26,936 nucleotides of DNA from positions 1-26,936 of IMG/VR virus record IMGVR_UViG_3300044714_000043; one strand, 5' to 3'. The notes under the pieces were generated by a model. That model worked only from the letters and a program-made list of their open reading frames with translations, was not told the origin of the DNA and made no database searches. Both the position numbers and the translations under genes were made by a program. Below, piece by piece: positions 3,922 to 22,116 of this stretch (position 1 is the stretch's first letter; each line of letters begins with the position of its first letter). Source of the DNA: a virus.

Positions 3922-4024
3922 ACCATTAGAATTACTCGCTAAAAACCCGGAAAAGCACTTCTATTTTTTACGTAAATAATTATATTTAGGGTGTCACAGC
4001 ACCCCAAAAACAAGGAGTCATCCA
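3922..4024 (+). promoter_or_regulatory. AT-rich intergenic region with hairpin, probable promoter/leader
   Basis: A stretch rich in A and T (about 3942-3988) stands out in GC-rich DNA and contains TATATT at 3981-3986, a possible -10 element, although no good -35 is visible. It is followed by a hairpin GGGTG-tcacag-CACCC (3989-4004) and AAGGAG before the ATG at 4025. It may serve as a weak terminator for terL or as a new promoter for the small genes. Confidence 0.35.
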
Positions 4025-4270
4025 ATGGCAGATCGTTATGGACAGCGCGTCGAAATCCTCGGCGGCATGAGCGAGTTCGTCGGCAAGACGGGGCGGATCG
4101 TCGCAAAAGAGGGTCCGGCGTTCTATCGCGTCGAACTCGATCAGCCGGTCCATATCCGCGGCGTCGGCATGGTCGCCGACGATCTTTGGGAGAGCCGGCT
4201 ATTGCGGACGATCCGCAATCGTCCGGTGTCCGTCGAGGACATCGCCACCAGCCCGGCAGGCTGGCGGTAA
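4025..4270 (+). CDS. Small protein with KOW/SH3-like fold, unknown function
   Basis: 81 residues after a clear AAGGAG ribosome-binding site. The first 60 residues, YGQRVEILGGMSEFVGKTG then RIVAKEGPAFYRVELDQPV, have the G-x-V-x-V---G--G-V pattern of KOW or SH3-like small barrels that bind nucleic acid or protein. The stop overlaps the next ATG (TAATG). It opens the run of small genes after the terminase. A role in translation or as an accessory head/tail factor cannot be told from sequence; the fold call is by pattern only. Confidence 0.65.
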   Translation: MADRYGQRVEILGGMSEFVGKTGRIVAKEGPAFYRVELDQPVHIRGVGMVADDLWESRLLRTIRNRPVSVEDIATSPAGWR

Positions 4271-4482
4271 TGGCCCTTCCCTCGGCAGAGCAAGAGCAGC
4301 AAGTCAAATGGGATTTGCTGCTCGCCGATTTCGAACTCCGGTTGGAACAGGTCCTCCAGATCAAAAGCTTTGAGCCCAGGCGGCTCCTGTTCCAAGGACT
4401 GACAGCGTTCGCGGCGATCTTCGCGGCCGGCGGTGTTGTCGGCGGATTGCTCGTCCGCCTCTTGTCCGGTCATGGAGGATGA
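4270..4482 (+). CDS. Small single-span membrane protein
   Basis: 70 residues starting at the ATG that overlaps the upstream stop. The N-terminal half is charged and helical (EQEQQVKWDLLLADFELRLE), and the C-terminal part is a hydrophobic helix, LTAFAAIFAAGGVVGGLLVR. The next gene has the same plan (charged helix, then TALGTGAAIFAAGAAFVKIL), so the pair may be paralogous or act together. Small membrane proteins in this position can be holins or antiholins, but the lysin is 2.4 kb away and this is unproven. Confidence 0.6.
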   Translation: MALPSAEQEQQVKWDLLLADFELRLEQVLQIKSFEPRRLLFQGLTAFAAIFAAGGVVGGLLVRLLSGHGG

Positions 4483-4483
4483 A

Positions 4484-4708
4484 ATGAGCGATCCGCGGCT
4501 CAGCACCCCCGATGAATTGACGATCTACATCCGCACGGAGTTGGCGCGCATCGATCAGCTTCGCGCCGATGCCGATCGCAAACGGCAAGAATTTGAGCAC
4601 GGCCCCGGTTTGTATCGGATCGAAATCTGGAAAATCGTCGTAACTGCACTCGGCACCGGGGCGGCGATCTTCGCGGCCGGTGCCGCCTTCGTTAAAATAC
4701 TCGGTTGA
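4484..4708 (+). CDS. Small single-span membrane protein, similar plan to the preceding gene
   Basis: 74 residues; the start at 4484 follows GGAGG by five bases. Residues 1-45 are charged and probably coiled-coil (ELARIDQLRADADRKRQEFE), and 50-74 are a membrane helix. The motif AAIFAAG is shared with the previous protein. Transcription probably ends just after it at the hairpin 4709-4735. Function unknown; a holin or membrane-anchored accessory protein is possible. Confidence 0.6.
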   Translation: MSDPRLSTPDELTIYIRTELARIDQLRADADRKRQEFEHGPGLYRIEIWKIVVTALGTGAAIFAAGAAFVKILG

Positions 4709-4735
4709 AGGGGCGGGCCAACCGCCCCCTTCTTC
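4709..4735 (+). terminator. Intrinsic terminator
   Basis: GGGGCGG (4710-4716), a five-base loop and CCGCCCC (4722-4728) are followed by CTTCTTCT, starting just after the stop at 4708. The U-tract is imperfect, so some read-through into the next gene is likely. Confidence 0.6.
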
Positions 4736-4758
4736 TCTCACACACCGGAGTTAAGACA

Positions 4759-5070
4759 ATGACGATCATCCTGCGCGATGACGACATTCGCGCGTTCGAT
4801 GCAAAGGCGTTCTCGTTTCACCCGGAGGACGGCTGGTTTGTCGCAGAGGCAAGCGATGTCGGGTTCCGTCAATGCTTCCAGATTTACGACGACGCATGCG
4901 ACGAAGGAATCGCACTGCGCGGCTGTCGGTCGACGGTGCGCTATTACCTGAGCGAGGTTAAGCGCAATCCGGACGGCGACGTCCAGGTCTGGATATTCAA
5001 GCCCATCAGCGAGGACGCGCGGCGCATTCCGCGGTGCAGCGGGACGCAGGTCCACATCCTTAACGACTGA
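4759..5070 (+). CDS. Hypothetical phage protein
   Basis: 103 residues from the ATG at 4759, preceded by GGAG; an in-frame upstream start would read from the terminator. The protein is mixed alpha/beta, starting with MTIILRDDDIRAFDAKAFSF and ending GTQVHILND, and contains several cysteines. No motif recognised. It stands alone between two terminators (4709-4735 and 5073-5094). The leader AAGACAATG is repeated before the next gene (5111-5118), suggesting related leaders for short genes. Confidence 0.6.
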   Translation: MTIILRDDDIRAFDAKAFSFHPEDGWFVAEASDVGFRQCFQIYDDACDEGIALRGCRSTVRYYLSEVKRNPDGDVQVWIFKPISEDARRIPRCSGTQVHILND

Positions 5071-5072
5071 CC

Positions 5073-5094
5073 GGGCGCGCAAGCGCCCCTTTTT
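5073..5094 (+). terminator. Intrinsic terminator
   Basis: GGGCGC (5073-5078), loop GCAA, GCGCCC (5083-5088), then C and five T (5090-5094). It follows the stop at 5070 directly. Confidence 0.75.
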
Positions 5095-5115
5095 CACAAT
5101 GCAGGGATCAAGACA

Positions 5116-5268
5116 ATGGATCGCGACGAATGGTTTGCGGACCTTTACGGCTGCCTCGCGGACATGGGCGCGACAGCCTATGACGAGACCGAGGCAATTC
5201 GGCTTTACGAGCGCGGATATTCACCGGCGGACGCGGCTGGTGAATTGGCGTGCGATGGCGAGGAGTAA
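5116..5268 (+). CDS. Short phage protein (50 aa), unknown
   Basis: ATG at 5116 to TAA at 5266-5268, beginning MDRDEWFADLYGCLADMG and ending in an acidic tail. The middle (ETEAIRLYERGYSPADAAGE) looks like two short helices, with SPADAA resembling helix N-caps in small DNA- or protein-binding modules. The leader AGGGATCAAGACA is like that of the 4759 gene, and the downstream gene's AGGAG overlaps its last codons. No function assigned. Confidence 0.55.
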   Translation: MDRDEWFADLYGCLADMGATAYDETEAIRLYERGYSPADAAGELACDGEE

Positions 5269-6917: not shown

Positions 6918-7301
6918 ATGAGTTGGATCGCCCCGGACCCCGCATCCTACGCCGGCAAGGGCGAGGGCAGCGGGCATTGTGTCGCCTTCGTCCAGGCCGC
7001 GGCGCACGCGCCCCACACGTCTTACTGGCGGCGTGGCGTCAAGGTCCGCGGCAACCAGGTCGCGACCGGGACGGCGATCGCCACGTTCAGTCGGGACGGC
7101 CGCTATGAGAACCGGGTCGACGGCGCCTCGCATGCGGCGATCCTGATCGCCCAGGATGGCGGCGGGCTCCGCGTGTGGGACCAGTGGAAGGGCCACCCGG
7201 TAAGTCAGCGGACGATCCGCTGGAAGGGCGGCCAGGGCACCGCCAACAATGACGGCGACGCCTATTTCGTGATCGAGGGCCCACCCCCCACCGCGGCGTG
7301 A
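6918..7301 (+). CDS. BPSL0067-like putative cell-wall hydrolase (endolysin candidate)
   Basis: 127 residues. The order of motifs GEGSGHCVAFVQAAAHAP, then W-x-x-G--V-G------GTAIATF, the SHAAILIAQ segment, VWDQWKGH and a final NN-GDAYFVIE matches BPSL0067-family proteins. These are related to CHAP/NlpC-type amidases and are used by phages and effectors to cut peptidoglycan. The likely catalytic pair is the Cys of GHCVAF (about residue 21) and the His of SHAAIL (about 72). There is no signal peptide, so it would need a holin. No Shine-Dalgarno sequence is visible before 6918; an alternative start at 6873 passes through the terminator. The family match is from memory. Confidence 0.7.
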   Translation: MSWIAPDPASYAGKGEGSGHCVAFVQAAAHAPHTSYWRRGVKVRGNQVATGTAIATFSRDGRYENRVDGASHAAILIAQDGGGLRVWDQWKGHPVSQRTIRWKGGQGTANNDGDAYFVIEGPPPTAA

Positions 7302-8018
7302 TCAGGCGGCGATCTCGATCGCCCATCCGTGACTCTTGCGGTTGACGATGCGGATGATCCCCGGATAGGTCCGGCGCAAACGGCGAATGCAGTCGCGCTC
7401 CATCGCTTGCGTCCGGTAGTCGCGGCATCCGCCCGCGGTGTCCCAATGCAGGTTGACCCAATAGATATACTGCGCGCAGACGACGCCACCGTCCTCGGCG
7501 ATGCAGCGCGCGCATAGTTCATAGTCCTCCTTGACCGGATAGCTTTCGTCGAAATAGGTGCGCCCGTCGTTGACGATCCCCATGCAGCTGGCGGTAACGT
7601 AGGATCGCCAGCGAAACGGCCAGTAGGGATAGATCGAGCGGGTCGCGCCGTCGGTCGCCACGCCCCAGATGCGATAGGACAGCTGCTCCGTCAGGTCGAA
7701 CAGCTTGACGAATTCCCCGAGCCAGATCCGCTCGTCGAGGCGGACGCGCATCGTGTCGCGCTCGCGCAGCTTCGAATATCCGGCATAGTGCGAGTCGTCG
7801 TCGATCATCACCACCCGGCGGTCCTCGGTGCTGCGCAATATCCAGTTCCGCGTCGCGGTGATCCCGTGGATTTCATCCGGAACGGCGACGACGTGGCGCG
7901 CGCCCATCCGCTGATAGGCCGGCACCTCGAGCGCGGGAACGAACAGCGTCGCGGACGGCAGCACCGTCTGCGTCGTCACCCGGCCGGCGCGGCCCTTACT
8001 CGGGACGGCGATCAGCAT
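7302..8018 (-). CDS. GT-A-like glycosyltransferase, TET-associated (TAGT) type
   Basis: 238 residues from the ATG at 8018 (a TTG at 8027 with AGGA just upstream is an alternative). The N-terminus MLIAVPSKGRAGRVTT, HGITATRNWILR, the metal-binding VVMIDDD (residues 73-75) and YFDESYPVKEDYELC near 156-169 are the pattern of TAGT-like glycosyltransferases of phages. Family members are proposed to glucosylate modified bases, though many occur without a known partner. No TET/JBP dioxygenase or hydroxymethyl-base enzyme is in this window. It is the last gene of the leftward operon and overlaps the ParB-domain gene by 23 bp or more. Confidence 0.6.
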   Translation of the reverse strand: MLIAVPSKGRAGRVTTQTVLPSATLFVPALEVPAYQRMGARHVVAVPDEIHGITATRNWILRSTEDRRVVMIDDDSHYAGYSKLRERDTMRVRLDERIWLGEFVKLFDLTEQLSYRIWGVATDGATRSIYPYWPFRWRSYVTASCMGIVNDGRTYFDESYPVKEDYELCARCIAEDGGVVCAQYIYWVNLHWDTAGGCRDYRTQAMERDCIRRLRRTYPGIIRIVNRKSHGWAIEIAA

Positions 8019-8763
8019 TGCGGGCAATTCGTCCTGGCGGCGGCGGTCGTTGCTTGACTTGCGACGTCTGCGGGTTCTGTCCGCCCTTGCGGGTCCGGCC
8101 CTCGCGCAGCTGGACGGCCGGCCGCTCGATCAGGCGCAGGACGTCCGCGGCGGCGACGACGCGTTGTGTTCCGACATCGTCAAACGGCGAGCCCTTTTTG
8201 TAGCCCCCGCGGCGCACCGGGACGAGCGACAGCGCGACCTTGAGCCGTTCCCATTCGGCGGCGTCCTGGCACATGATGACGGCATATTCGCGGGCGGGTT
8301 CCAGTTGCAGCGCCTGCGGCAGCTCACCCCCGAAATCGTCGCGCGCGGTCGCGTCCGCGGTCGCGAACCCGAGCATTTCGAGATCAAAGCCCTCGTTGTG
8401 CAAGTCGGCGAGTTCGACCCGCAGCAATCCGTTATCCCAGGCGGCGTTGAGAGCGATTTGATTGTCGGCGACGCGATAGGCGCGCTTCTGCGCGGCGGTC
8501 CAGCCGCGGGCGACGATCACCGGGACCTCGAGCAGGTCCAGCTGCGGCGCGGCGAGCACGCGCCCATGTCCGGCGATGATCAGGTCCGCTTCGTCGATCA
8601 GGACCGGCATCGTCCAGCCGAATTCGCGGATCGAGGCGGCGATCGTCGCAATCTGTTTCGCGGTATGTTTCCGGGCATTGCGCGCATAAGGGATCAGCTG
8701 CGCGACCGGGCGGCGCTCGATCGTCTCGATCGGCCACGCACGCGCGGCGGCGGTGTCAGACAT
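7996..8763 (-). CDS. ParB/Srx-fold N-terminal domain protein
   Basis: 255 residues from ATG 8763. Residues 10-110 are a ParB N-terminal domain: VAQLIPYARNARKHTAKQI, IREFGWTMPVLIDE, then the box AGHGRVLAA with the GHGR motif and RAYRVADNQIAL. In many alphaproteobacterial prophages this domain is fused to a DNA methyltransferase; here no methylase motif (DPPY/NPPY) follows. The C-terminal part has EWERLKVALSLVPVRRGGYK and VGTQRVVAAADVLRLIERP, then a basic tail. It is co-transcribed with the glycosyltransferase, hinting at a DNA-modification role; this is inference. Confidence 0.75.
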   Translation of the reverse strand: MSDTAAARAWPIETIERRPVAQLIPYARNARKHTAKQIATIAASIREFGWTMPVLIDEADLIIAGHGRVLAAPQLDLLEVPVIVARGWTAAQKRAYRVADNQIALNAAWDNGLLRVELADLHNEGFDLEMLGFATADATARDDFGGELPQALQLEPAREYAVIMCQDAAEWERLKVALSLVPVRRGGYKKGSPFDDVGTQRVVAAADVLRLIERPAVQLREGRTRKGGQNPQTSQVKQRPPPPGRIARNADRRPE

Positions 8764-8776
8764 CGGCGCCGGCGGC

Positions 8777-8801
8777 AAAAGAGCGGGCGGCAGGGCCGCC
8801 C
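8777..8801 (-). terminator. Terminator-like hairpin inside the leftward operon
   Basis: Read on the minus strand, GGGCGGC (rev. comp. 8795-8801), a three-base loop, GCCGCCC and then GCTCTTTT. It lies between the small membrane protein gene and the ParB-domain gene. The short U-tract suggests partial termination or processing. Confidence 0.45.
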
Positions 8802-8854
8802 AAGTTTGGGAGGAATAAACGCGAAACGACGCTGTCTCGTCTCACCCCGGCACC

Positions 8855-9013
8855 TTATCCCAGCGTCCCGACGATGATCCAGCTGATCAGCCCCCATAGG
8901 ACCGCCCCGAGCCCGAGGGCGAGGATGAGTCCGCGCACCCGTCCGATTGGCGGCCGCGCAGGCTTGGCGGCTGAGAGGGCCCCGGAGAGGCGCAACAGGT
9001 CAATCGCGATCAT
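8855..9013 (-). CDS. Small membrane protein (52 aa)
   Basis: ATG at 9013, eight bases after the RuvC-like stop. It encodes MIAIDLLRLSGALSAAKPAR and then a hydrophobic helix (LILALGLGAVLWGLISWIIV) to the end. No strong ribosome-binding site is visible. Placement in the operon and the clean membrane helix support a real gene; function unknown. Confidence 0.45.
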   Translation of the reverse strand: MIAIDLLRLSGALSAAKPARPPIGRVRGLILALGLGAVLWGLISWIIVGTLG

Positions 9014-9021
9014 GCGCGTTT

Positions 9022-9621
9022 TCACGTGAAACGAGCCCGGTCGCCGAGCGCGAACAGCGGTCCAGCACTTCGGGCTTTCGGGAACAGCACCGCCTCGGCA
9101 TAGACCCAGAGGGCGAGCGCGTCCGCCTCGTCCTCGCTGACATCGGGCCAGCCATAGACGGCGCACATCTTTTGCGTCGCGGCTTTCTTGTTCTCCCGGC
9201 CGCCCCACGAGCCGTTGCCGGTGAAGTGGCGGCAGATGACGTTGGATTGCTCCTCGCGGCAGGGGAGCCCGCGCTCGTGCGCGATCATCTCGACCAGGCC
9301 GCACATCGCGAACAGCCGGCGCACCACGTAAATGTCGATCGGCGTCGACGAACTCGGCGTCGTCGAGATCACTTGGCCGGTTTTTGTGCGGACCTTTTTC
9401 GGCGCGAACCGCGGCACATAGGGCGCCTCGAATACGACCATCCGCGGCTGGGATTTGGCGCAGCAGCGATCGAGCCAGACGCGGAATTGCGCCAGGACCT
9501 CGCCGGTGGCGTCGCGCGGTTTGCCCGAGCGGAAATGCCCAAAAGCGGGACGGTCGCCCGGCATGCCATAGGCCCAGCCGGTCGTTGTGGCGACGTCGAG
9601 CGCGAGGATGCCGCCGGTCAT
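9022..9621 (-). CDS. RuvC-like Holliday junction resolvase
   Basis: 199 residues. The RNase H-fold motifs of phage RuvC-like resolvases are present: ILALDVATTTGWAYG with the first catalytic Asp (D9), MVVFEAP with the Glu (E65), and SEDEADALALW with the C-terminal acidic pair (D164/D167). Such enzymes cut branched recombination or replication DNA before packaging. Its ATG overlaps the preceding stop (TGATG). A copy of its first 14 or so codons lies upstream at 10294-10208, divided from it by one gene. Confidence 0.88.
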   Translation of the reverse strand: MTGGILALDVATTTGWAYGMPGDRPAFGHFRSGKPRDATGEVLAQFRVWLDRCCAKSQPRMVVFEAPYVPRFAPKKVRTKTGQVISTTPSSSTPIDIYVVRRLFAMCGLVEMIAHERGLPCREEQSNVICRHFTGNGSWGGRENKKAATQKMCAVYGWPDVSEDEADALALWVYAEAVLFPKARSAGPLFALGDRARFT

Positions 9622-10211
9622 CAGGTCATGCCGAAATGCCGGCGATCGGCGATGCGTTGCGGCTGCTCGCGCTCCAACTTCTGCTCGATCTCGGCGAAGT
9701 CGAGAGACCGCATGGCTTCGTCGACAGGGGCCAAGCTTTCGAGAAAGACGCGGGCGGCGTCCGACAGCACCGCCAAGGAAACAATCTGGGTGCGCAGTTC
9801 GAGGCTCTGTTTCTCAATCTTGGTGATGGCGGCCTTCATCATCGCCTCGATCGAAGTCTTGGCGACCCGGCGCAGTTCGGCCCGACGCGAGTTGAGCGCG
9901 TTTTCGCCGCGCCCCGACCAGCTCATGCCGATCGCCGGCGCAAACGATTTCGGGATGCCAAGGTCTTCGCAACGGGCCGCTATTTTGGCTTGGGACTCGG
10001 CGACGACTTTCTGCGCCTCCTCGGTCGCCGCCTGCCAGATTTCGTCTTGATCCCAGGAATAGACTGCGGCCAATTTCTTCTCGAAATCGGCGATGCAGTG
10101 CGCTGCCTGTTCCTCGGCGTGGGCCTTGAGGACCTTCGCCCGATCCTTGATGATCATGCTCAGGTCGTGGGTCTCGTTGCGGCTCAGCACGCGGCCGTTT
10201 TGAATCATCAT
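9621..10211 (-). CDS. Helical phage protein of unknown function
   Basis: 196 residues from the ATG at 10211, with GGAG seven bases upstream. Mostly long helices rich in Ala, Lys and Glu (AKVLKAHAEEQAAHCIADFE, IEKQSLELRTQIVSLAVL), likely coiled coil. The centre, GIPKSFAPAIGMSWSGRGEN, looks conserved. It is translationally coupled on both sides: its start overlaps the ruvC-fragment stop by ATGA, and its stop overlaps the resolvase ATG. The position suggests a DNA-processing accessory; family not recognised. Confidence 0.65.
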   Translation of the reverse strand: MMIQNGRVLSRNETHDLSMIIKDRAKVLKAHAEEQAAHCIADFEKKLAAVYSWDQDEIWQAATEEAQKVVAESQAKIAARCEDLGIPKSFAPAIGMSWSGRGENALNSRRAELRRVAKTSIEAMMKAAITKIEKQSLELRTQIVSLAVLSDAARVFLESLAPVDEAMRSLDFAEIEQKLEREQPQRIADRRHFGMT

Positions 10212-15119: not shown

Positions 15120-15361
15120 TCCGTTTCGTCATCGATGAGCCGGCGTTTCGTCGCCTCGTCGCCGGTCAGCCGCTGACCGTTGAGGGCGTCGAGATCATGA
15201 TCTCGGGGAGGATCGGCTGGGTAAAGTTGATGCGCGCGATCCTCGACGCGGTGGCGCCGGCGGCGCGCGACGCTACCGCACCGCTTCCCGAGGCGCGGCA
15301 GGGCGGCCCACCAGATCCGCCGCAGGCGCGCGAATTCCTACCGAGGAGTGGACGGCGATGA
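15116..15361 (+). CDS. Small phage protein, unknown
   Basis: 81 residues; ATG overlaps the Cro-like stop. It starts MIRFVIDEPAFRRLVAGQPL and VEGVEIMISGRIGWVKLMRA, an alpha/beta pattern, followed by a Pro/Ala/Gln-rich tail. The stop overlaps the start of the nuclease gene (ATGA). Coupling suggests a helper of the recombination module; no family recognised. Confidence 0.6.
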   Translation: MIRFVIDEPAFRRLVAGQPLTVEGVEIMISGRIGWVKLMRAILDAVAPAARDATAPLPEARQGGPPDPPQAREFLPRSGRR

Positions 15362-16206
15362 CCGGGCTCGCGACAGTCATCCGGTGTAGTGCCCTAACGG
15401 CATACCCCGATTGCAACCGGCGCGGTGCGGCGCGGTTGTTCTGGCGCGAGATCAGCAGCATGGGTTTTCGGCTGCGGTCGACGCCGCGCGGCATCGGCGC
15501 CGCGATCGGTAGCGCGGTGCACCGAGCGGCCGAGGTCATCCTCCGGGAAAAGGCCGAAAGCGGCACTCTGCCGCCGTCGACGGTCGCCGCTGATTGCGCG
15601 GCCGAGACGCTACTCGAAGGATTGCGCGAGGGTGTCGAGTTCGACCGGGTGACCGCGAACCAGGTCGAGGGCGAGGTTACCGCGGTCGGCATGGCGCGCG
15701 CCTATCATCGCGTCGTGGCGCCGACAGTTGACGCGGTGCTGATCGAAGAAAGGCTAGAGGCCGAGGTTGCCCCCGGTCTGATTCTGTCGGGTCAGCCCGA
15801 CGTCGTCGCGCGCGAGCCGCATCGGGTGCGCGATCTAAAAACTTCGACCCGCGCGAGCGGTGGTCATTGGCCGCAACTCGGTGCCTATTCATTGATCGTT
15901 CGCAGCAATAACATAGAGATTGAAGAGGCAGCGGTTGACAGTATCAGGCGAGTTGCGATCGGCAAGCCGCAGCCCGACCCAATATCGAAACCAGTGGCGA
16001 TCGCCCAGGCCGAGACGGCGGCAAGCAACATCCTCCGTCATATCGCGGGCGACCTCGAGACGTTCCGCAATGGCGATCCAGCGCGGCGCATCCTGCCCGG
16101 CGATCCGTGGGCGTTCCAGGCGAACCCGTCATCGATCTTGTGCTCGCCAAAGTATTGCCCAGCGCATGGCACTGAGTTCTGCCAGGAATGGCGGCAAAAT
16201 GAATAA
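15358..16206 (+). CDS. PD-(D/E)XK exonuclease, Cas4/RecB-like with four Cys
   Basis: 282 residues. The core motifs of RecB/Cas4 nucleases are visible: GSAVHRAAE (His about 55), a Glu in IEERLEAEV (about 132), GQPDVV (D148), VRDLKTS (D159, K161) and QLGAYSL (Q173, Y177). A Cys near the N-terminus (AYPDC, C19) and three at the C-terminus (LCSPKYCPAHGTEFC) fit the iron-sulphur cluster of Cas4-type enzymes. In phages this enzyme resects DNA ends for a RecT-type annealing protein, here RecT at 20436. The first pentamer array begins right after its TAA. Confidence 0.82.
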   Translation: MTGLATVIRCSALTAYPDCNRRGAARLFWREISSMGFRLRSTPRGIGAAIGSAVHRAAEVILREKAESGTLPPSTVAADCAAETLLEGLREGVEFDRVTANQVEGEVTAVGMARAYHRVVAPTVDAVLIEERLEAEVAPGLILSGQPDVVAREPHRVRDLKTSTRASGGHWPQLGAYSLIVRSNNIEIEEAAVDSIRRVAIGKPQPDPISKPVAIAQAETAASNILRHIAGDLETFRNGDPARRILPGDPWAFQANPSSILCSPKYCPAHGTEFCQEWRQNE

Positions 16207-16359
16207 GAGGACGCGAGCGGAAGGGAAATCCGAAGATATGACCAGACCAGCATGGATGTCAGGTGAGCGGATTGGTTTTATTGGATATGAAGTGACCTGA
16301 GTAGAACCGACGAGACTTGACAGAAGGTGAACCGACAGGATCAGAGAGGAGTGGTTTCA
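16207..16359 (+). repeat. NNNGA pentamer array, first segment
   Basis: Directly after the nuclease stop the sequence falls into five-base steps ending in GA. From 16207 to 16271, 10 of 13 pentamers end in GA; after a 17-base box (GGATTGGTTTTATTGGA, 16269-16285), 12 of 13 pentamers from 16286 to 16350 do. The array runs straight into the ribosome-binding site and ATG of the next gene, whose start region (16348-16364) resembles the box. TGA and TAG triplets occur throughout, so it is not coding. Confidence 0.88.
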
Positions 16360-16968
16360 ATGGATACGCTGACAATCCGCCTGAGAGGCTCGGCGCCGAC
16401 GATCATGCAGTGCGACCGATTGGTCAATCCGTTCGATACAATCACACGCCAGCTAAAGACGATCACTGCGAAGCGGAAAAAAACCGACGCCGACCTCGAG
16501 GAGATCAATCGGCTGAAATTCCTTGGCTCGCTCTATTACGAGCCCAAGATTGGGCCCCACTGGCCCGGTCAGAACATCGATCGCATGATCTTCGACGCGG
16601 CCAAGCTGTCGCGTCGCGGCCAAGACATCAAGCGCGCCTTCATGGTGATGGATGACATGGTGCCGCTGATCTATGACGGGCCGCGCACGCCCGAAGAGCT
16701 CTATGCGGATGCGCGGTTTGTCGATATCCGCTCGGTCGTGATCCGCGGCCAGCGCGTGATGACCTGCCGGCCGATCTTCCGGGAATGGAAGGTCGAATAC
16801 GAATGTGCCTATGACCCGGATGTGCTGAACCGCGACGACGTGGTCGCCTTCCATGCTACCGCCGGGCAGTTCATCGGTTTGAGCACTTACCGACCGCGCT
16901 TCGGGCGCTTCGGGGTCGAGGCCGTCGATGGCGTCGCCTTCATCGGCCAACCGCGGCTCGCCGCTTAA
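16360..16968 (+). CDS. Phage protein related to the 18521 product (family A paralog 1)
   Basis: 202 residues from ATG 16360, eight bases after GAGGAG; upstream in-frame codons read the array. It begins MDTLTIRLRGSAPTIMQCDR, has a basic middle (QLKTITAKRKKTDADLEE) and a conserved C-terminal half: VMTCRPIFREWKVEYE, DPDVLNRDDVVAFHATAGQF and the Gly/Arg-rich RPRFGRFGVEAV. The same order of motifs occurs in the 18521 product. The final Gly-rich strand-loop is reminiscent of RAMP-fold (Cas6/Cas7-like) proteins, which is only a suggestion. It lies between two pentamer-array segments. Confidence 0.65.
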   Translation: MDTLTIRLRGSAPTIMQCDRLVNPFDTITRQLKTITAKRKKTDADLEEINRLKFLGSLYYEPKIGPHWPGQNIDRMIFDAAKLSRRGQDIKRAFMVMDDMVPLIYDGPRTPEELYADARFVDIRSVVIRGQRVMTCRPIFREWKVEYECAYDPDVLNRDDVVAFHATAGQFIGLSTYRPRFGRFGVEAVDGVAFIGQPRLAA

Positions 16969-17619
16969 TTACATGGGAGTAGAAATGACCAGACAGTGAC
17001 TTGATGTGAAGGGAAGTAAGGACAGCCGACAGGATGTGATGTGAATCGATGCGACTGTAATAGATCAGTTCTGAAGTGACGTGATCAGAGAGGATTGGTT
17101 TATTGGAATGGAACGGTAGCAGAACGGACCCGAGCAGAAGCGATAGGACGTGAAGTCAGTAGAGGCGGATTCTCATTTGACGCGAAGTGATGTGGTCGGA
17201 GCAGCATGGATCTCAGAGGATTGGTTTATTGGAGTAGACGGGATGTGCTTACACCAGAAATGACGATGAGCGGCAGTGATTTGAAGCGACACGAGGGGAA
17301 GTGATCAGAGAGGATTGGTTTATTGGAGCAGAGCAGAAGGTGACCGTAAATCATCGGATGTCAGCAGACTATATAATATCAGAAGTGATATGAGCAGAAG
17401 GTGACCTGACAAGAGATCATCTGAGCGGATTGGGTTTACGAAGGAACGTTGGTTTATTGGACAGGAGGCGACCGGAATTTAGCAGACGCGATTAGAACGC
17501 GAGGGGATCACAAGCGAAGTGAAAGGATTGGTTTATTGGAAATGATGGGAGCACAGCCGAACCGAATAAATAGGATCGTGACCTGACTAGCTATGAAGTG
17601 AGCAGAGAGGATTGGTTTG
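16969..17619 (+). repeat. NNNGA pentamer array with repeated GGATTGGTTTATTGGA boxes
   Basis: About 650 bp without a gene. The sequence is built mainly of five-base steps carrying GA (TGA, AGA, CGA, GGA), with the phase shifting now and then. The box GGATTGGTTTATTGGA is exact at 17092-17107, 17218-17233, 17312-17327 and 17525-17540, and decayed at about 17426-17461. The variant GGATTGGTTTGATGGA (17609-17624) contains the start codon of the next gene. Spacing between boxes is about 84-126 bp, and most are preceded by AGAG like a ribosome-binding site. Cytosines are scarce on this strand. Confidence 0.9.
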
Positions 17620-18126
17620 ATGGATGACGAAGACGACCATCTCACTCAGCAATATCCAGCCTGGCGCGAGGCGATCAGTCGCCTGGTGCGTGACAAGCGG
17701 CTCATGCCGGACACGCTGTTCGAATTCGCCGAATTGTATGAACTGTTTTTGATCAAGCGGCCATTGCCATCGACACCGCTCGCCGAGGCGGAAAAGCTGA
17801 AACTGCAATTTCTCGCCCAGTTCGTCGACTTCGAGGAAGCGCTGTTGACCGAGCACCAGGTCGCGCTCGCCAATGTCCGCGGCGTCGGCTATCGCATCGT
17901 GCCGCCGGCGGAACAAACGACATGGGCCGAGCGACACGGCATTGCCGAGGTTCGCAAGGCGGTGCGCAAGCTTTCCGATCGCCTGACCAATGTCGATTTC
18001 ATCGCGCTCGGCGCCGAGGATCGCAAAGCCAATGCCGACGCCCTCGCACGTCTCGGCATGCTTGGCGGAATGCTGAAACAGGCGACCGAATTCAAGCTGT
18101 TTCCGACCGACAAAGAGGAAAAATAG
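17620..18126 (+). CDS. Hypothetical phage protein of the recombination operon
   Basis: 168 residues from ATG 17620 within the last box; GAGAGG lies about nine bases upstream. An acidic start (MDDEDDHLTQQYPAWREAIS) precedes a helical part and the motif ALANVRGVGYRIVPPAEQTT, WAERHGIAEVRKAVRKLSDR, then LARLGMLGGMLKQA. The GVGYRIVPP--Q core recalls conserved uncharacterised proteins of alphaproteobacterial phages. Its stop is followed at once by the duplicated recT start. Role unknown. Confidence 0.65.
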   Translation: MDDEDDHLTQQYPAWREAISRLVRDKRLMPDTLFEFAELYELFLIKRPLPSTPLAEAEKLKLQFLAQFVDFEEALLTEHQVALANVRGVGYRIVPPAEQTTWAERHGIAEVRKAVRKLSDRLTNVDFIALGAEDRKANADALARLGMLGGMLKQATEFKLFPTDKEEK

Positions 18127-18321
18127 ATGGCAGAAACTGCGCGCCCGCAGCTAGTCAATCCGCGCGAGGATGGCGGCGCACCCGCAGAGCCGGCCTTGCC
18201 CGGCGGGACGTGGCCCGTCCAGGCATGGCACGGCTTGGCACGGCATGGCAGGCGGGGCGCGGCGCGGCCGGGCGACGCGTGGCCTGGCGAGGCCAGGCAA
18301 GGCTTGGCAGGCACGGCTTGA
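18127..18321 (+). pseudogene. Duplicated, truncated start of recT running into the GGCNN array
   Basis: The first 28 or so codons (MAETARPQLVNPREDGGAPA) match the RecT start MAETTRPQLVEPRQDGGGSA, and the DNA stays similar for about 80 bp to the LP at residue 24-25. After that the frame reads only array sequence to a chance stop at 18321. AGAGGAAAAATAG before the ATG is a good ribosome-binding site, so a 64-residue peptide could be made. It marks the left edge of a probable insertion within the recT 5' region. Confidence 0.8.
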
Positions 18322-18504
18322 CGTGGCTTGGCGTGGCACGGCCCGGCCGGGCAAGGCCGGCAGGGCAGGTCGGGGCGCGGAGTGGCGAGGCGTGGCTGGG
18401 CTCGGCAGGCATGGCTGGGCGGGGCGCGGCGAGGCAGGGCTCGGCGAGGCAGGGCTCGGCAGGCAGGGCTGGGCGTGGCAAGGCTCGGCGGGGCAGGCTT
18501 TTAA
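18205..18504 (+). repeat. GGCNN pentamer array 1 (left flank of two-gene cassette)
   Basis: About 300 bp made of GGC every five bases (for example 18221-18250 six NGGCN units in a row, 18251-18310 eleven of twelve GGCNN units). The two variable bases change freely and the phase slips by one base at intervals. GCC is rare, so the strand is strongly G-over-C. No stop codon can arise easily, so all six frames look open; none should be taken as a gene. The array ends just before TAGAGGAGAAAATTC and the ATG at 18521. Confidence 0.9.
18410..18453 (+). repeat. 44-bp exact direct repeat, copy 1
   Basis: This 44-bp stretch beginning CATGGCTGGGCGGGGCGCGG occurs again at 19853-19896 in array 2 in the same orientation. 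The copies are 1,443 bp apart and enclose the genes 18521-19713. Recombination between them would delete or loop out the cassette. Confidence 0.85.
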
Positions 18505-18520
18505 CTAGAGGAGAAAATTC

Positions 18521-19231
18521 ATGCGCGGACAAGCAAACACTGGTAACGGCAAAGCGGCACGCGACCAAATCCCGCCACTCGCGCCGGCCGAGATCGACGC
18601 CGTATTGCAAAAGGGCAAGGTTGAAACAGTCGTTATCAGCCCACCCAATATGCAAAAAGCAGTGCTGCATATTCGCGGCCTCTCGCCGTACGTGCAGCAC
18701 AAATTCAGTCAAAAGGCGCAAGCGCAAATGGAGGAGACCCAGCGCGCCGGCACGCAGGCGCGCAGCCGTAAAAAGCGCGAGGCGCGCGACTTCGAATCCG
18801 GTTATCTGGCCGCCCAGCATATTTCTGTCGAAGGCTGGCGCGGTATCCCGGCACCCGCCTTTAGAAATGCGATGATTGACGCTTGTCGCCTTGTCGGGTT
18901 CGTAATGACCAAGGCGAAACTATCGGTTTTCGTCGAGGCGGACGGATACGACGCGAGCGACGGCACCCCGCTCGTTAAAATCATTGGCGTGCCCGAGATT
19001 CATAAAGGCTGGGGCCGCAATGCCAACGGTACGGCGGATTTGCGCTGGCGGCCATTGTGGCGGGAATGGGAAGCGAACCTTCCTCTGCGCTGGGATGCCG
19101 ATCAGTTCAGCGCGACTGACGTTTTTAACCTGACAGCGCGCGCTGGACTGCAAGTCGGTATTGGTGAAGGGCGGCCATCGAGCCCGAATAGCTTCGGCCT
19201 CGGCTGGGGTCTGTTTGAGGTTCTCGCCTGA
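18521..19231 (+). CDS. Phage protein related to the 16360 product (family A paralog 2)
   Basis: 236 residues from ATG 18521 with GAGGAG eight bases upstream. Notable segments: VLHIRGLSPYVQHKFSQKA, GWRGIPAPAFRNAMIDACRL, ADLRWRPLWREWEANLPLRW, VFNLTARAGLQVGIGEGRPS and SFGLGWGLFEVLA. The order RP-(L/F)-REW, D-D, ARAG--(I/V)G, RP, FG-G-(F)EV matches the 16360 product, so the two are distant paralogs. The glycine-rich ending is of the kind seen in RAMP-fold RNA-binding proteins, but no catalytic motif is visible. It overlaps the next gene by one base. Inference: a nucleic-acid binding partner of the recombination module. Confidence 0.65.
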   Translation: MRGQANTGNGKAARDQIPPLAPAEIDAVLQKGKVETVVISPPNMQKAVLHIRGLSPYVQHKFSQKAQAQMEETQRAGTQARSRKKREARDFESGYLAAQHISVEGWRGIPAPAFRNAMIDACRLVGFVMTKAKLSVFVEADGYDASDGTPLVKIIGVPEIHKGWGRNANGTADLRWRPLWREWEANLPLRWDADQFSATDVFNLTARAGLQVGIGEGRPSSPNSFGLGWGLFEVLA

Positions 19232-19713
19232 TGACGGATCGCGAAGCGCAACTCCGCAGCGAGCTCGAAGACCTAATCGACGCTGACGGCCGGATTTTCG
19301 CGGCCGACGTTGTCGATTTTGCGGTTCGCAATCCGGACAGCGAACTTCACCGCCGCTTTCAATGGGATCAGGCAAAAGCGGCTTATCAGCACTGGCTCCA
19401 TACTGCGAGGCATCTGATCGCCGTCTACGTCCTCGACGTGCGCGGCGAGCGGCGGACGATCTCGCTCACAACCGACCGCGTCAACGGCGGCGGCTATCGC
19501 GAGCGAGACGACGTACTGTCATCGGCCGAAATGCGGCGCCAGGCAGTGCAAGACGCGATTGCCGAAATTACGCGCTGGCGTGATCGCAATAATCACCTGC
19601 ACGAACTCGCGGAAATCTTCGCCGCGATCGATCGGGCGACGACTGGACCACCGCCAGCGCAGACCCGTCGAATGCGCCGGCTAACGCCGCCCGAGGAACG
19701 GCCGAGCGCGTGA
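19231..19713 (+). CDS. Hypothetical phage protein, second gene of the array-flanked cassette
   Basis: 160 residues; ATG overlaps the previous stop (TGATG). It contains FQWDQAKAAYQHWLHTARHL, VRGERRTISLTTDRVNGGGY and a helical end with ITRWRDRNNHLHELAEIFAA. The GGGYR--DDVL motif recalls uncharacterised proteins of alphaproteobacterial prophages. The stop is followed within ten bases by array 2. Function unknown; expected to work with the 18521 product. Confidence 0.65.
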   Translation: MTDREAQLRSELEDLIDADGRIFAADVVDFAVRNPDSELHRRFQWDQAKAAYQHWLHTARHLIAVYVLDVRGERRTISLTTDRVNGGGYRERDDVLSSAEMRRQAVQDAIAEITRWRDRNNHLHELAEIFAAIDRATTGPPPAQTRRMRRLTPPEERPSA

Positions 19714-19721
19714 AAAAGACG

Positions 19722-20420
19722 TGGCATGACGAGGCTTGGCGGGACATGGCTTGGCTAGGCAGGGCAGGCGTGGCACGGCGAGGCATGGCTGGGCGTGGCA
19801 CGGCGGGGCATGGCTGGGCGGGGCGCGGCGAGGCAGGCGTGGCACGGCGGGGCATGGCTGGGCGGGGCGCGGCGAGGCAGGGCTCGGCGAGGCAGGCATG
19901 GCATGGTTCGGCTTGGCACGGCAGGGTGTGGCGCGGCCGGGCAACGCCGGCTCGGCAGAGTTGGGCCGTTCAGTGCACGAGCGGTCTGGGCTTGGCAATG
20001 CAAGGCAGGCGCGGCCCGGCGGGGCGTGGCACGCCGTGGACAGGCGGGGCTTGGCCGGGCAGGGCGCGGCAGGCGTGGTGTGGCGGGGTTGGATGCGGCG
20101 TGGCACGGCACGGCGCGGCATGGCAGGGCGGGGCACGGCAGGCGGGGCAGGGCGGGGCACGGCGGGGCACGGCGGGGCATGGCTGGGCGGGGCAAGGCGA
20201 GGCAGGCGTGGCACGGCGAGGCGCGGCGAGACAAGGCACGGCCGGGCGTGGCGAGGCCGAGCGGGGCGAGGCAGGGCTCGGCAGGCACGGCACGGCACGG
20301 CACGGCGGGGCAATTGGCTGGGCGGGGCTAGGCGGGGCGCGGCAAGGCGGGCATGGCGTGGCTGGGTTAGGCGTGGTCTGGCGCGGAGCGGCACGGCATG
20401 GCTCGGCAGGCACGGCAAGA
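19722..20420 (+). repeat. GGCNN pentamer array 2 (right flank of two-gene cassette)
   Basis: About 700 bp of GGC at five-base intervals with variable dinucleotides, longer than array 1 and including nested 44-bp-period copies near 19808-19896. A less regular interval lies near 19945-20030. The same strand is G-rich as in array 1. It ends at GGCACGGCAAGATAGGGAG, which forms the ribosome-binding site of recT. Apparent ORFs of 150-320 codons on either strand here are artefacts of the repeat. Confidence 0.9.
19853..19896 (+). repeat. 44-bp exact direct repeat, copy 2
   Basis: Identical to 18410-18453 and in the same orientation; see that entry. A further partial copy of its first 30 bases precedes it at about 19809-19838. 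Confidence 0.85.
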
Positions 20421-20435
20421 TAGGGAGATCAATGG

Positions 20436-21524
20436 ATGGCTGAAACCACTCGCCCACAACTTGTCGAACCGCGTCAGGATGGCGGCGGCAGCGCCCCGGC
20501 TCTGCCCGCGGAAATTGAGGGCGGCTTGCCGGCATTGCCGGAATTCGAGGCGATGCCGCGCGGGTTGCGGATTTTCTTTGATCCAAAATGGCGCGAGGCA
20601 TGCCAGGCCGCGGCGACGAGTCTGTCGAAAGCGGTCGGCTTTGCACCGCCGCATCTGATCGGCAAGACCGAAAGCTGTCTCGCCGTCGTCAATCTGGCGC
20701 TGACCTGGAACCTCAGTCCTTACATGGTCGCGAGTTCCACCTATCAAATGCCCGGCGGCTCGGTCGGATATGAGGGCAAGCTTGTGCACGCGATCCTCGA
20801 AGCGTCGCGGCGGCTCGTTGGCCCGATCCGCTACGCCCATTATGGCGATTGGTCTCAGGTCCAGCGCAAATTCGAGATCAAGGAACGCCCCCGGCAAAAC
20901 CGCGACGGGCGCGGCGATGACGAGCGCGGGCCGATCAAATGGGCGGCCCCCACTTACACCGCACAAGACGAAATCGGGCTCGGCGTCACAGTGACGTGCC
21001 GGTTGCGCGGCGAGGACGAAGACCGCCGGCTCGATTTCGACATGGTCCAGGCGTTCCCGCGCAATTCGACATTGTGGGCAACCGATCCCAAGACCCAATT
21101 GCAATATGCCGCGGTGCGGCGGTTGGCGAGCACGGTCGTCCCGTCGCTGCTGATGGGCGTTCCGTTTGACGGCGAGCCGGACGGCGGCGGCGATTGGGCG
21201 AGCAATCTAGTTGACGTCACCCCGCTCGCCGAGCCCCGCGAACAGCCTGCGCAGCCCCCAGGGGCGGCCAGGGAACCCGGATCGCGCCGCCGCGCAACAA
21301 CGGCAGCCCCAGCGGAAAGCGCGTCCGGGGCGGCCCCAGAGGCACCCACAAACCTTGGCCCTGGCCACGAACAGGGCGAGACGGCGAAAGGTGACGCGCC
21401 GGCGGCGACAGATCAGTCGCAACCGGTCCGGGAAGCGGCGCCACCGGCGCAACAGACCGCACAACCCGCGCAACAGCCTGCCCCTGGCCCGAACAGGGGG
21501 CGTCGGGTCCATTTCGAGGCGTGA
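20436..21524 (+). CDS. recT: RecT-family single-strand annealing protein
   Basis: 362 residues; the ATG at 20436 has GGGAG eight bases upstream. The RecT core runs from about residue 45 to 250: GKTESCLAVVNLALTWNLSP, YMVASSTYQMPGGSVGYEGK, LVHAILEASRRLVGPI, and near the end WATDPKTQLQYAAVRRLAST with VVPSLLMGVPF. RecT anneals single strands made by an exonuclease, here the Cas4-like nuclease at 15358. The last 110 residues are a low-complexity tail rich in Pro, Ala and Gln, possibly for partner binding. The 5' end of this gene is duplicated at 18127. Confidence 0.87.
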   Translation: MAETTRPQLVEPRQDGGGSAPALPAEIEGGLPALPEFEAMPRGLRIFFDPKWREACQAAATSLSKAVGFAPPHLIGKTESCLAVVNLALTWNLSPYMVASSTYQMPGGSVGYEGKLVHAILEASRRLVGPIRYAHYGDWSQVQRKFEIKERPRQNRDGRGDDERGPIKWAAPTYTAQDEIGLGVTVTCRLRGEDEDRRLDFDMVQAFPRNSTLWATDPKTQLQYAAVRRLASTVVPSLLMGVPFDGEPDGGGDWASNLVDVTPLAEPREQPAQPPGAAREPGSRRRATTAAPAESASGAAPEAPTNLGPGHEQGETAKGDAPAATDQSQPVREAAPPAQQTAQPAQQPAPGPNRGRRVHFEA

Positions 21525-21528
21525 TGCG

Positions 21529-22116
21529 ATGGAAGAAATCGAACGCCTCGAAATCGACCCCGATCGTTTCGAGATCGGCCGGACGATCGCGTCGATCGAC
21601 GAGTCGACGACCGTGCAAATCGGTGAAGGCAAAGACCGGCTTTTGGTGCGCGCCTCGCCGCGGCGCGAAGGTTGCGGCGAGTGCACCTTTTGCTGCACCG
21701 CCCTCGGCATTAACGAATTGCAAAAGCTGCCGATGACACGGTGCCAGCATGTCGCCGGCAAGGGCTGCGGGATTTACCCAAACCGCCCCAAACCATGCCA
21801 GGAATATGCCTGCGGCTGGTTGCTCGGCAATTTCGATGCGCGCTTCCGGCCCGATCGCGTCGGCGCCTCAGTGACGTTCTATGTCGCGCCAGACTTCGGG
21901 TTTTATGCGGTTGTCGTCGTCAACAGCGCAAAGGTCCACCACAAGCGGCTGCGCCAGTTGCTCGACCGGCTGTTCAGTCAGCTGCCGGAAATCCGCGTCA
22001 TCTATGACGACAAGCACGGATCGATTTACCGCCACGGCCAACCGCCGCAGCGGTTTCGGATGATGAAACGGGCACCGGGCGATTACGAAAACGCGCTCTA
22101 TCTCATGCTGGATTGA
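21529..22116 (+). CDS. YkgJ-like cysteine-cluster protein
   Basis: 195 residues from ATG 21529, five bases after the recT stop. Residues 42-85 hold the cysteine cluster GCGECTFCCTALGINELQK, TRCQHVAGKGCGIYPNRPK, PCQEYACGW, with the CxxCxxCC pattern of YkgJ/UPF0153 proteins that bind zinc or iron. The C-terminal half is an alpha/beta region (VTFYVAPDFGFYAVVVVNSA). Its place between RecT and the SbcC-like ATPase suggests a role in phage DNA metabolism, unproven. Confidence 0.65.
   Translation: MEEIERLEIDPDRFEIGRTIASIDESTTVQIGEGKDRLLVRASPRREGCGECTFCCTALGINELQKLPMTRCQHVAGKGCGIYPNRPKPCQEYACGWLLGNFDARFRPDRVGASVTFYVAPDFGFYAVVVVNSAKVHHKRLRQLLDRLFSQLPEIRVIYDDKHGSIYRHGQPPQRFRMMKRAPGDYENALYLMLD

What the first reader, a model, noticed from the sequence alone, without database searches (positions are those of the whole stretch)
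16207..17624. NNNGA pentamer-phased arrays between recombination genes
About 800 bp of non-coding DNA in two segments follows a five-base rhythm ending in GA (12 of 13 consecutive pentamers at 16286-16350, 10 of 13 at 16207-16271). The remaining bases vary freely, so this is neither a simple microsatellite nor a classical tandem repeat. The coding strand is purine-rich and C-poor, so the RNA would be unstructured and could form R-loops. Possible roles: filament-register sites for a DNA- or RNA-binding protein of the module, a replication/recombination entry point, or a translation-insulating spacer.
Basis: partly seen in the sequence, partly recalled or inferred. Interest (0 to 1): 0.9.

Follow-up and report, generated by a model that had tools for sequence, protein, structure and literature searches.

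The report
Phage VIPR guide-RNA arrays, NNNGA variant
The odd five-base rhythm is a set of guide-RNA arrays of VIPR, a newly described CRISPR-related weapon that phages use against rival phages; these arrays use a reduced repeat motif (NNNGA instead of GGYNN), and the same phage carries a second VIPR system with the usual motif.

Summary
Lag-5 periodicity exceeds every one of 1000 dinucleotide shuffles (z 4.4 and 8.7), and the 12/13 and 10/13 counts are exact. The window holds four pentamer arrays: two NNNGA (16207-16359, 16970-17616) and two GGCNN (18200-18503, 19720-20430). They flank two paralogous genes, 16360-16968 and 18521-19231. Both match the solved SUSP1 Vipr protein (PDB 36pp; 6.5e-35, and 3e-50 for the second family), and the first folds like Csm3/Cas7. 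The gene at 17620 matches SUSP1 vap1. So these are guide (vrRNA) arrays of VIPR, described in a 2026 preprint (PMC13142463). Each NNNGA tract ends in a conserved tail. Over 100 relatives carry GG-anchored arrays; the window, L003 and L147 (one clade nested among them) have lost the first G. In the loci that lost the first G, G-loop residue 176, acidic in all GG-array relatives checked, is not acidic. A blind array-first scan recovered Vipr genes at 16 of 22 hypervariable GANNN arrays, against 0 of 97 control loci. No DNA target of an NNNGA guide was found, so its reading code is inferred. In a near-identical phage (L004) the NNNGA cassette is absent: a second, differently coded VIPR was inserted beside the GGCNN one.

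The parts
15358..16206 (+). PD-(D/E)XK exonuclease gene upstream of the cassette (context)
   Evidence: Pfam PDDEXK_1 3.9e-10; phrog_69 exonuclease
16207..16285 (+). candidate vrRNA 1: 13 NNNGA units plus tail GGATTGGTTTTATTGGA (16269-16285)
   Evidence: HMM parse; counts
16286..16359 (+). candidate vrRNA 2: 13 NNNGA units plus tail-like GAGGAGTGGTTTCA that also serves as the ribosome-binding region of the vipr start at 16360
16360..16968 (+). vipr gene of the NNNGA system (RAMP fold; G-loop IGLSTYRPRFGRF, T176 in place of D/E)
   Evidence: phmmer to PDB 36pp SUSP1 Vipr 6.5e-35; AF2 pLDDT 89.6; VIA Z 10.9 to Csm3; phrog_4652
16970..17107 (+). candidate vrRNA 3, tail 17092-17107
17108..17233 (+). 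candidate vrRNA 4, tail 17218-17233
17234..17327 (+). candidate vrRNA 5, tail 17312-17327
17328..17461 (+). candidate vrRNA 6 with a longer, partly doubled tail (17427-17461)
17462..17540 (+). candidate vrRNA 7, tail 17525-17540
17541..17619 (+). candidate vrRNA 8; its tail GAGGATTGGTTTG runs into the start codon of the accessory gene
17620..18126 (+). vipr-accessory gene (vap1 family)
   Evidence: phrog_5926 4.1e-20; SUSP1 28031-28471 is phrog_5926 1.1e-75; BLASTP 33% over 80 aa, 1e-12
18127..18200 (+). fragment resembling the RecT start (MAETxRPQLVxPRxDGG), probable junction scar of the inserted cassette
   Evidence: sequence; L004 recT start aligns here 79.6%
18200..18503 (+). GGCNN array of the second VIPR system, blocks of 9-11 units broken by GGCA|GGC slips
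18521..19231 (+). second vipr gene (distant paralogue, G-loop VGIGEGRP, E at the 176 position)
   Evidence: phrog_4652 5e-12; family profile to PDB 36pp 3e-50
19231..19713 (+). gene of unknown function next to the second vipr, candidate accessory gene
   Evidence: phrog_15946 1.6e-12
19720..20430 (+). second GGCNN array, about ten blocks
20436..21524 (+). RecT gene (context)
   Evidence: Pfam RecT 2.5e-8; phrog_561

Best explanation
16207-18126 is a VIPR locus. The NNNGA tracts are guide-RNA (vrRNA) genes; the 16360 protein (Vipr, a Cas7/Csm3-like RAMP) coats each RNA one subunit per five bases, and the complex binds double-stranded DNA of rival phages by base pairing with the variable bases, silencing or blocking it; the 17620 protein is the accessory factor. 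Shown here: the protein families, the arrays, the conserved tails, their hypervariability, and the link between array and Vipr. Inferred: transcription, RNA loading, DNA targeting. In this variant the anchor has shrunk from GGY to GA. The most likely register is [N3 G A][N1 N2], in which N1N2 is the reading dinucleotide and N3 takes the place of the lost first G, so the predicted target is N1N2x repeated (one-base skip). The cassette was added next to another VIPR system with GGC/NN arrays.
For: Protein: single-sequence phmmer match to the solved SUSP1 Vipr protein, full length, 6.5e-35; RAMP fold; G-loop conserved. Neighbour: vap1 family. Arrays: lag-5 signal, tails, arrays differ between the window and L003 while genes stay 80-82% identical. 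Association: pentamer arrays beside nearly every relative examined in cultured phages, virus contigs and genomes; a blind scan for nine spaced GA dinucleotides gave Vipr at 16/22 variable arrays, 1/97 repetitive ones, 0/97 control loci. Code: the preprint's one-base-skip rule was reproduced from data fetched here, the 19 best guide-target matches among relatives all being skip 1. Register: N1 and N2 are independent and look like GGY reading pairs, while N3 depends on N2 in an opposite way in window, L003 and L147; the tail GGATTGGTTT resembles the tail of the GGA-anchored arrays of L151. Evolution: NGA clade 100/100, nested among GGY loci.
Against: No target of an NNNGA guide was found in 2.8 Mb of fetched loci, in 50,697 phage records, or by one exact IMG/VR pattern. 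Tract length (about 12 to 25 units, with single-base slips) is less regular than the 9-16 units of the preprint. The register [G A N1][N2 N3], as in GAC/NN arrays of other loci, is not excluded. No RNA data exist for this phage.
Confidence: 0.92

Rival explanations
1. The arrays are vrRNAs, but all three variable bases N1N2N3 are read, so that each five-base unit specifies a triplet and the guide reads its target without gaps or with a different skip.
For: Three positions are variable; two distant lineage members (L400, L407) also have NNNGA arrays with three variable positions.
Against: N3 is A/T-rich (67%) in a 63% GC phage, and its dependence on N2 is unlike that of reading pairs in GGY arrays. 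The nearest relatives read two bases (preprint).
Confidence: 0.15
2. Register [G A N1][N2 N3]: the second G of GGY became A, the Y position became free, and N2N3 is the reading pair.
For: GAC/NN arrays exist in other Vipr lineages and show exactly a G-to-A change at the second position; N2-N3 dependence is also seen in L400.
Against: In window and L003 N2N3 is biased against the pattern seen in true reading pairs, N1N2 is not; the GGATTGG tail and the S175 residue link the clade to GGA/NN arrays.
Confidence: 0.25
3. DNA-level sites, for instance register sites for RecT or a recombination or replication entry point.
For: The arrays lie between an exonuclease and a RecT gene.
Against: In other phages the same arrays accompany Vipr genes beside integrase, polymerase, ligase or tail genes with no RecT next to them; L004 has the recombination genes without the NNNGA arrays.
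Confidence: 0.03
4. Neutral low-complexity or decayed coding sequence expanded by replication slippage.
For: Some blocks of the GGCNN arrays are near-copies of each other.
Against: Anchor bases are kept and other bases vary freely in independent phages; NNNGA units are mostly distinct; 16 of 22 variable GA arrays but 1 of 97 repetitive ones carry Vipr.
Confidence: 0.02

Closest known systems
VIPR of Escherichia phage SUSP1 (a type II system of PMC13142463; PDB 36pp)
   Same: RAMP-fold Vipr protein (34% identity over full length), vap1-family accessory gene downstream on the same strand, pentamer arrays both before and after vipr, tract followed by an invariable tail, phage-borne.
   Different: Anchor NNNGA instead of GGY/NN; a short tail with no evident fold, where the preprint predicts a conserved fold with a pseudoknot for SUSP1; the accessory gene is separated from vipr by six guide tracts; the last guide tail overlaps the start region of vap (and of vipr); two VIPR systems in one genome.
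Class 1 CRISPR-Cas Cas7/Csm3 backbone
   Same: RAMP fold (Z 10.9 to Lactococcus Csm3) and, by analogy, a guide RNA coated at fixed intervals.
   Different: No repeat-spacer array and no other cas family among the proteins examined; guide information is interspersed within pentamers; five-base instead of six-base register.
GGA/NN arrays of IMG/VR loci L151, L155, L401
   Same: A at the third anchor base, Ser at G-loop position 175, similar tail (GGATTGG followed by a T-rich stretch).
   Different: Both Gs kept and position 176 acidic; separate branch of the tree.

Membership tests
VIPR | Vipr protein: single-RRM RAMP with G-loop, homologous to SUSP1 Vipr | tested here: met
   phmmer 6.5e-35 to PDB 36pp; second protein's family 3e-50; fold
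VIPR | adjacent vipr-accessory (vap) gene | tested here: met
   17620-18126 and SUSP1 28031-28471 share phrog_5926 and align at 1e-12
VIPR | tandem pentamer array with conserved anchor alternating with hypervariable bases (GGY/NN or a related consensus) | tested here: met
   GGC/NN at the second system, GA anchor at the first
VIPR type II, strict | GGY anchor in each unit | tested here: not met
   NNNGA units: the first anchor base has 0.10 bits, the third is A in 94% (register as argued). Hence a variant, not a standard type II locus
VIPR | invariable 3' tail after each tract | tested here: met
   GGATTGGTTTATTGGA or close variants after tracts in window, L003 and L147
VIPR | 9-16 units per guide | tested here: inconclusive
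   about 12 to 25 units, slips inside tracts; transcript ends unknown
VIPR | guide RNAs are transcribed and co-purify with Vipr | not testable with these tools
   needs RNA and protein work
VIPR | target read as NN with one-base skip | tested here: inconclusive
   rule reproduced for GGY relatives; no target for NNNGA guides
CRISPR-Cas class 1 | repeat-spacer array with adaptation or effector cas genes | tested here: not met
   no such repeats and no cas family among the proteins scanned

The most novel reading that the evidence does not exclude
The NNNGA arrays use a different reading code from known VIPR guides: with the anchor reduced to two bases, a third base per unit becomes available and is read, or conditions recognition through N2, giving a denser code that evolved several times together with loss of the acidic G-loop residue 176.
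Probability: 0.15. Interest if true: 0.85.

Novelty: new variant of a known kind. Interest (0 to 1): 0.66.

Why it matters
VIPR is known from one preprint whose main text describes GGY/NN guides 'or a related consensus'. This locus shows how far the anchor can erode (to GA, and to [G/C]A in L147) while the system keeps many distinct guides. It also gives a protein-guide covariation that one mutagenesis experiment can test: residue 176 of the G-loop is D or E in all GG-array relatives checked (115 proteins) and T, A or V in the six loci (four lineages) that lost the first G. And it shows two VIPR systems with different repeat codes stacked in one phage by cassette insertion, which suggests orthogonal guide sets that do not cross-load.

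Tried and rejected
Target search for NNNGA guides under eight reading rules in the fetched loci gave only chance-level matches. tblastn with predicted target peptides, blastn with concatenated N1N2N3, and one exact IMG/VR pattern gave nothing. The window's own GGC guides gave no target either. The host is unknown: no close Vipr or terminase relative in 385 alphaproteobacterial genomes. Rfam: nothing. Special RNA folding of the tracts: none. S175 as a universal marker of an A third anchor base: rejected, because L385 and L405 have GGA arrays with G175. A strict rule 'non-GG means non-acidic 176': not universal, because L348 and L393 have GAC-type arrays with D176. A match of the window's 15-base tail in 98 viral stretches: all chance apart from L003's contig. 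The preprint's supplement (fig. S17, the consensus of each type) could not be read, so a GA consensus may already be listed there. Automatic registering of four GG arrays (L166, L185, L188, L274) failed; these were not checked by eye.

Full report
WHAT IS THERE. In 16207-16355 and 16970-17616 identity at lag 5 is 0.45 and 0.43, against 0.28 and 0.27 in dinucleotide shuffles (0 of 1000 shuffles as high), while the two genes on either side of the first array show nothing. Units are NNNGA: over 232 units from the window and its relative L003, N1 carries 0.00 bits, N2 0.13, N3 0.10, G 1.14 and A 1.63. A hidden-Markov parse splits the region into eight tracts, each followed by GGATTGGTTTATTGGA or a more or less altered form of it. 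Two further arrays with unit GGCNN lie at 18200-18503 and 19720-20430, in blocks of about 9-15 units separated by a one-base slip (GGCA|GGC).

THE PROTEINS. The genes at 16360-16968 and 18521-19231 are distant paralogues (phrog_4652 at 2e-52 and 5e-12). A literature search for pentanucleotide repeats in phages led to PMC13142463, a 2026 preprint that describes VIPR: a phage RAMP protein (Vipr) with guide RNAs built of YNNGG repeats, which silences rival phages. The SUSP1 gene pair at 28474-29061 and 28031-28471 of KT454805, with one array before and three after, fits the preprint's SUSP1 locus. The 16360 protein aligns with it over its full length at 34%. The name is settled by the PDB: entry 36pp, 'SUSP1 Vipr protein', is matched by the single window sequence at 6.5e-35, and by the profile of the second protein's family at 3e-50 (that profile also held the 16360 and SUSP1 proteins, so the independent evidence for the second gene is phrog_4652 at 5e-12). 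The AlphaFold model (mean pLDDT 89.6) matches Csm3/Cas7 subunits with Z up to 10.9. The 17620 protein belongs with SUSP1 vap1.

RELATIVES. Lag-5 arrays lie beside the gene in nearly every relative examined: cultured Pseudomonas, Mycobacterium, Gordonia, cyanobacterial and E. coli phages, bacterial genomes and IMG/VR contigs; the one locus without a scored array, L024, ends at the gene. Nearly all use GGC or GGT plus NN; L151, L155 and L401 use GGA plus NN. The window, L003 (88% identical protein) and L147 (64%, with [G/C]A anchors) lack the first G; they form one clade (100/100) nested among GGY loci. Scans with the NNNGA Vipr and vap profiles found no further close members.

BLIND TEST. Of 22 with variable bases, 16 encode a Vipr-profile match; of 97 repetitive ones, 1; of 97 loci from an unrelated 15-mer scan, 0. 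This scan also showed GAC- or GAY-anchored arrays in about ten loci, TGA (L416) and independent NNNGA arrays (L400, L407).

A PROTEIN-GUIDE COVARIATION. In the G-loop (IG.G[D/E].RPR.GRF) position 176 is D or E in 111 relatives found by an automatic motif and four more read by eye, all from loci with GG arrays as far as these could be parsed. It is T in the window, L003 and L147. It is also T in L164, the one other exception among the 35 proteins first aligned, and the L164 array, when then inspected, proved to be (G/T)GC rather than GGC. In the other lineages with a lost first G it is A (L400), V (L407) and V (L416). GAC-array proteins mostly have R, F, V, S or A, but L348 and L393 have D, so the rule holds best for loss of the first G. 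The clade also has H17 to Q and E53 to K (L164 also has Q17). The suggestion that residue 176 contacts the first anchor G is an inference; coordinates of 36pp were not available here.

CODE. As a positive control, 160 guide tracts from relatives were compared with 2.2 Mb of fetched loci under skips of 0, 1 and 2: the 19 best matches, several of them perfect over 18-22 bases, all use skip 1, the rule of the preprint. The same kind of test found nothing above chance for NNNGA tracts, and public searches failed. The register is therefore inferred. N1 and N2 are independent, and their joint table looks like GGY reading pairs. N3 depends on N2 (excess about 0.14 bits; 0 of 500 shuffles), with purine-pyrimidine alternation and few identical neighbours, the reverse of reading pairs, and L147 shows the same trend. 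Together with the A/T-rich N3 and the tail shared with GGA/NN arrays, this favours [N3 G A][N1 N2] with targets N1N2x. The alternative [G A N1][N2 N3] keeps about a quarter of the weight.

CASSETTE. L004 matches the window at 94.6% over 18190-21868 and at 85% over the exonuclease, but lacks 16207-18190 entirely: exonuclease, GGC array, second Vipr, GGC array, RecT. At 18127-18200 the window carries a copy of the RecT start, as expected of a recombination scar. L003 has the NNNGA cassette followed by a different protein with the same kind of start. So the NNNGA system was most likely inserted next to the GGCNN one (loss from L004 is less likely, given the scar), giving one phage two VIPR systems.

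LIMITS. The record is a 27 kb metagenomic fragment of unknown host. Nothing here shows transcription, loading or targeting. Fig. S17 of the preprint may already contain a GA consensus. Verdict: a new variant of a known, very recently described kind.

Noticed in passing
window 16346-16364 and 17607-17624: The tail of the guide tract doubles as ribosome-binding region and start codon of vipr and of vap (GAGGAGTGGTTTCAATGG, GAGGATTGGTTTGATGG), so Vipr bound to its own tail RNA could repress its own operon.
   Followed up: no
L325, L336, L348, L362, L381, L392, L393, L394, L417, L421: Vipr loci with GAC (or GAY)/NN arrays, a different anchor from GGY; in L325, L393 and L421 the array lies on the strand opposite to the gene.
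   Followed up: partly
L400, L407, L416: Distant Vipr lineages with NNNGA (L400, L407) or TGA/NN (L416) arrays.
   Followed up: partly
L318, L322, L370, L379, L402, L406: Variable GANNN arrays in viral contigs with no recognisable Vipr in the stretch fetched; perhaps truncated, perhaps a further protein family.
   Followed up: no
L028 3816-4000, L029 3621-3985 and 5149-5400, L030 4571-4730, L031 2885-3236: In actinophage VIPR loci the tracts are interspersed with tRNA T-arm-like sequence (GGTTCGANTCC); ARAGORN calls one doubtful tRNA in L030, Rfam finds nothing in L029-L031.
   Followed up: partly
window 18200-18503, 19720-20430: GGCNN blocks are separated almost always by the same one-base slip, GGCA|GGC, and have no obvious tail, perhaps overlapping guides.
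   Followed up: no
L362 about 3200-5200 of the minus strand and L400 about 7300-9900: Very large arrays (84 and 146 units parsed) next to a single Vipr gene.
   Followed up: no
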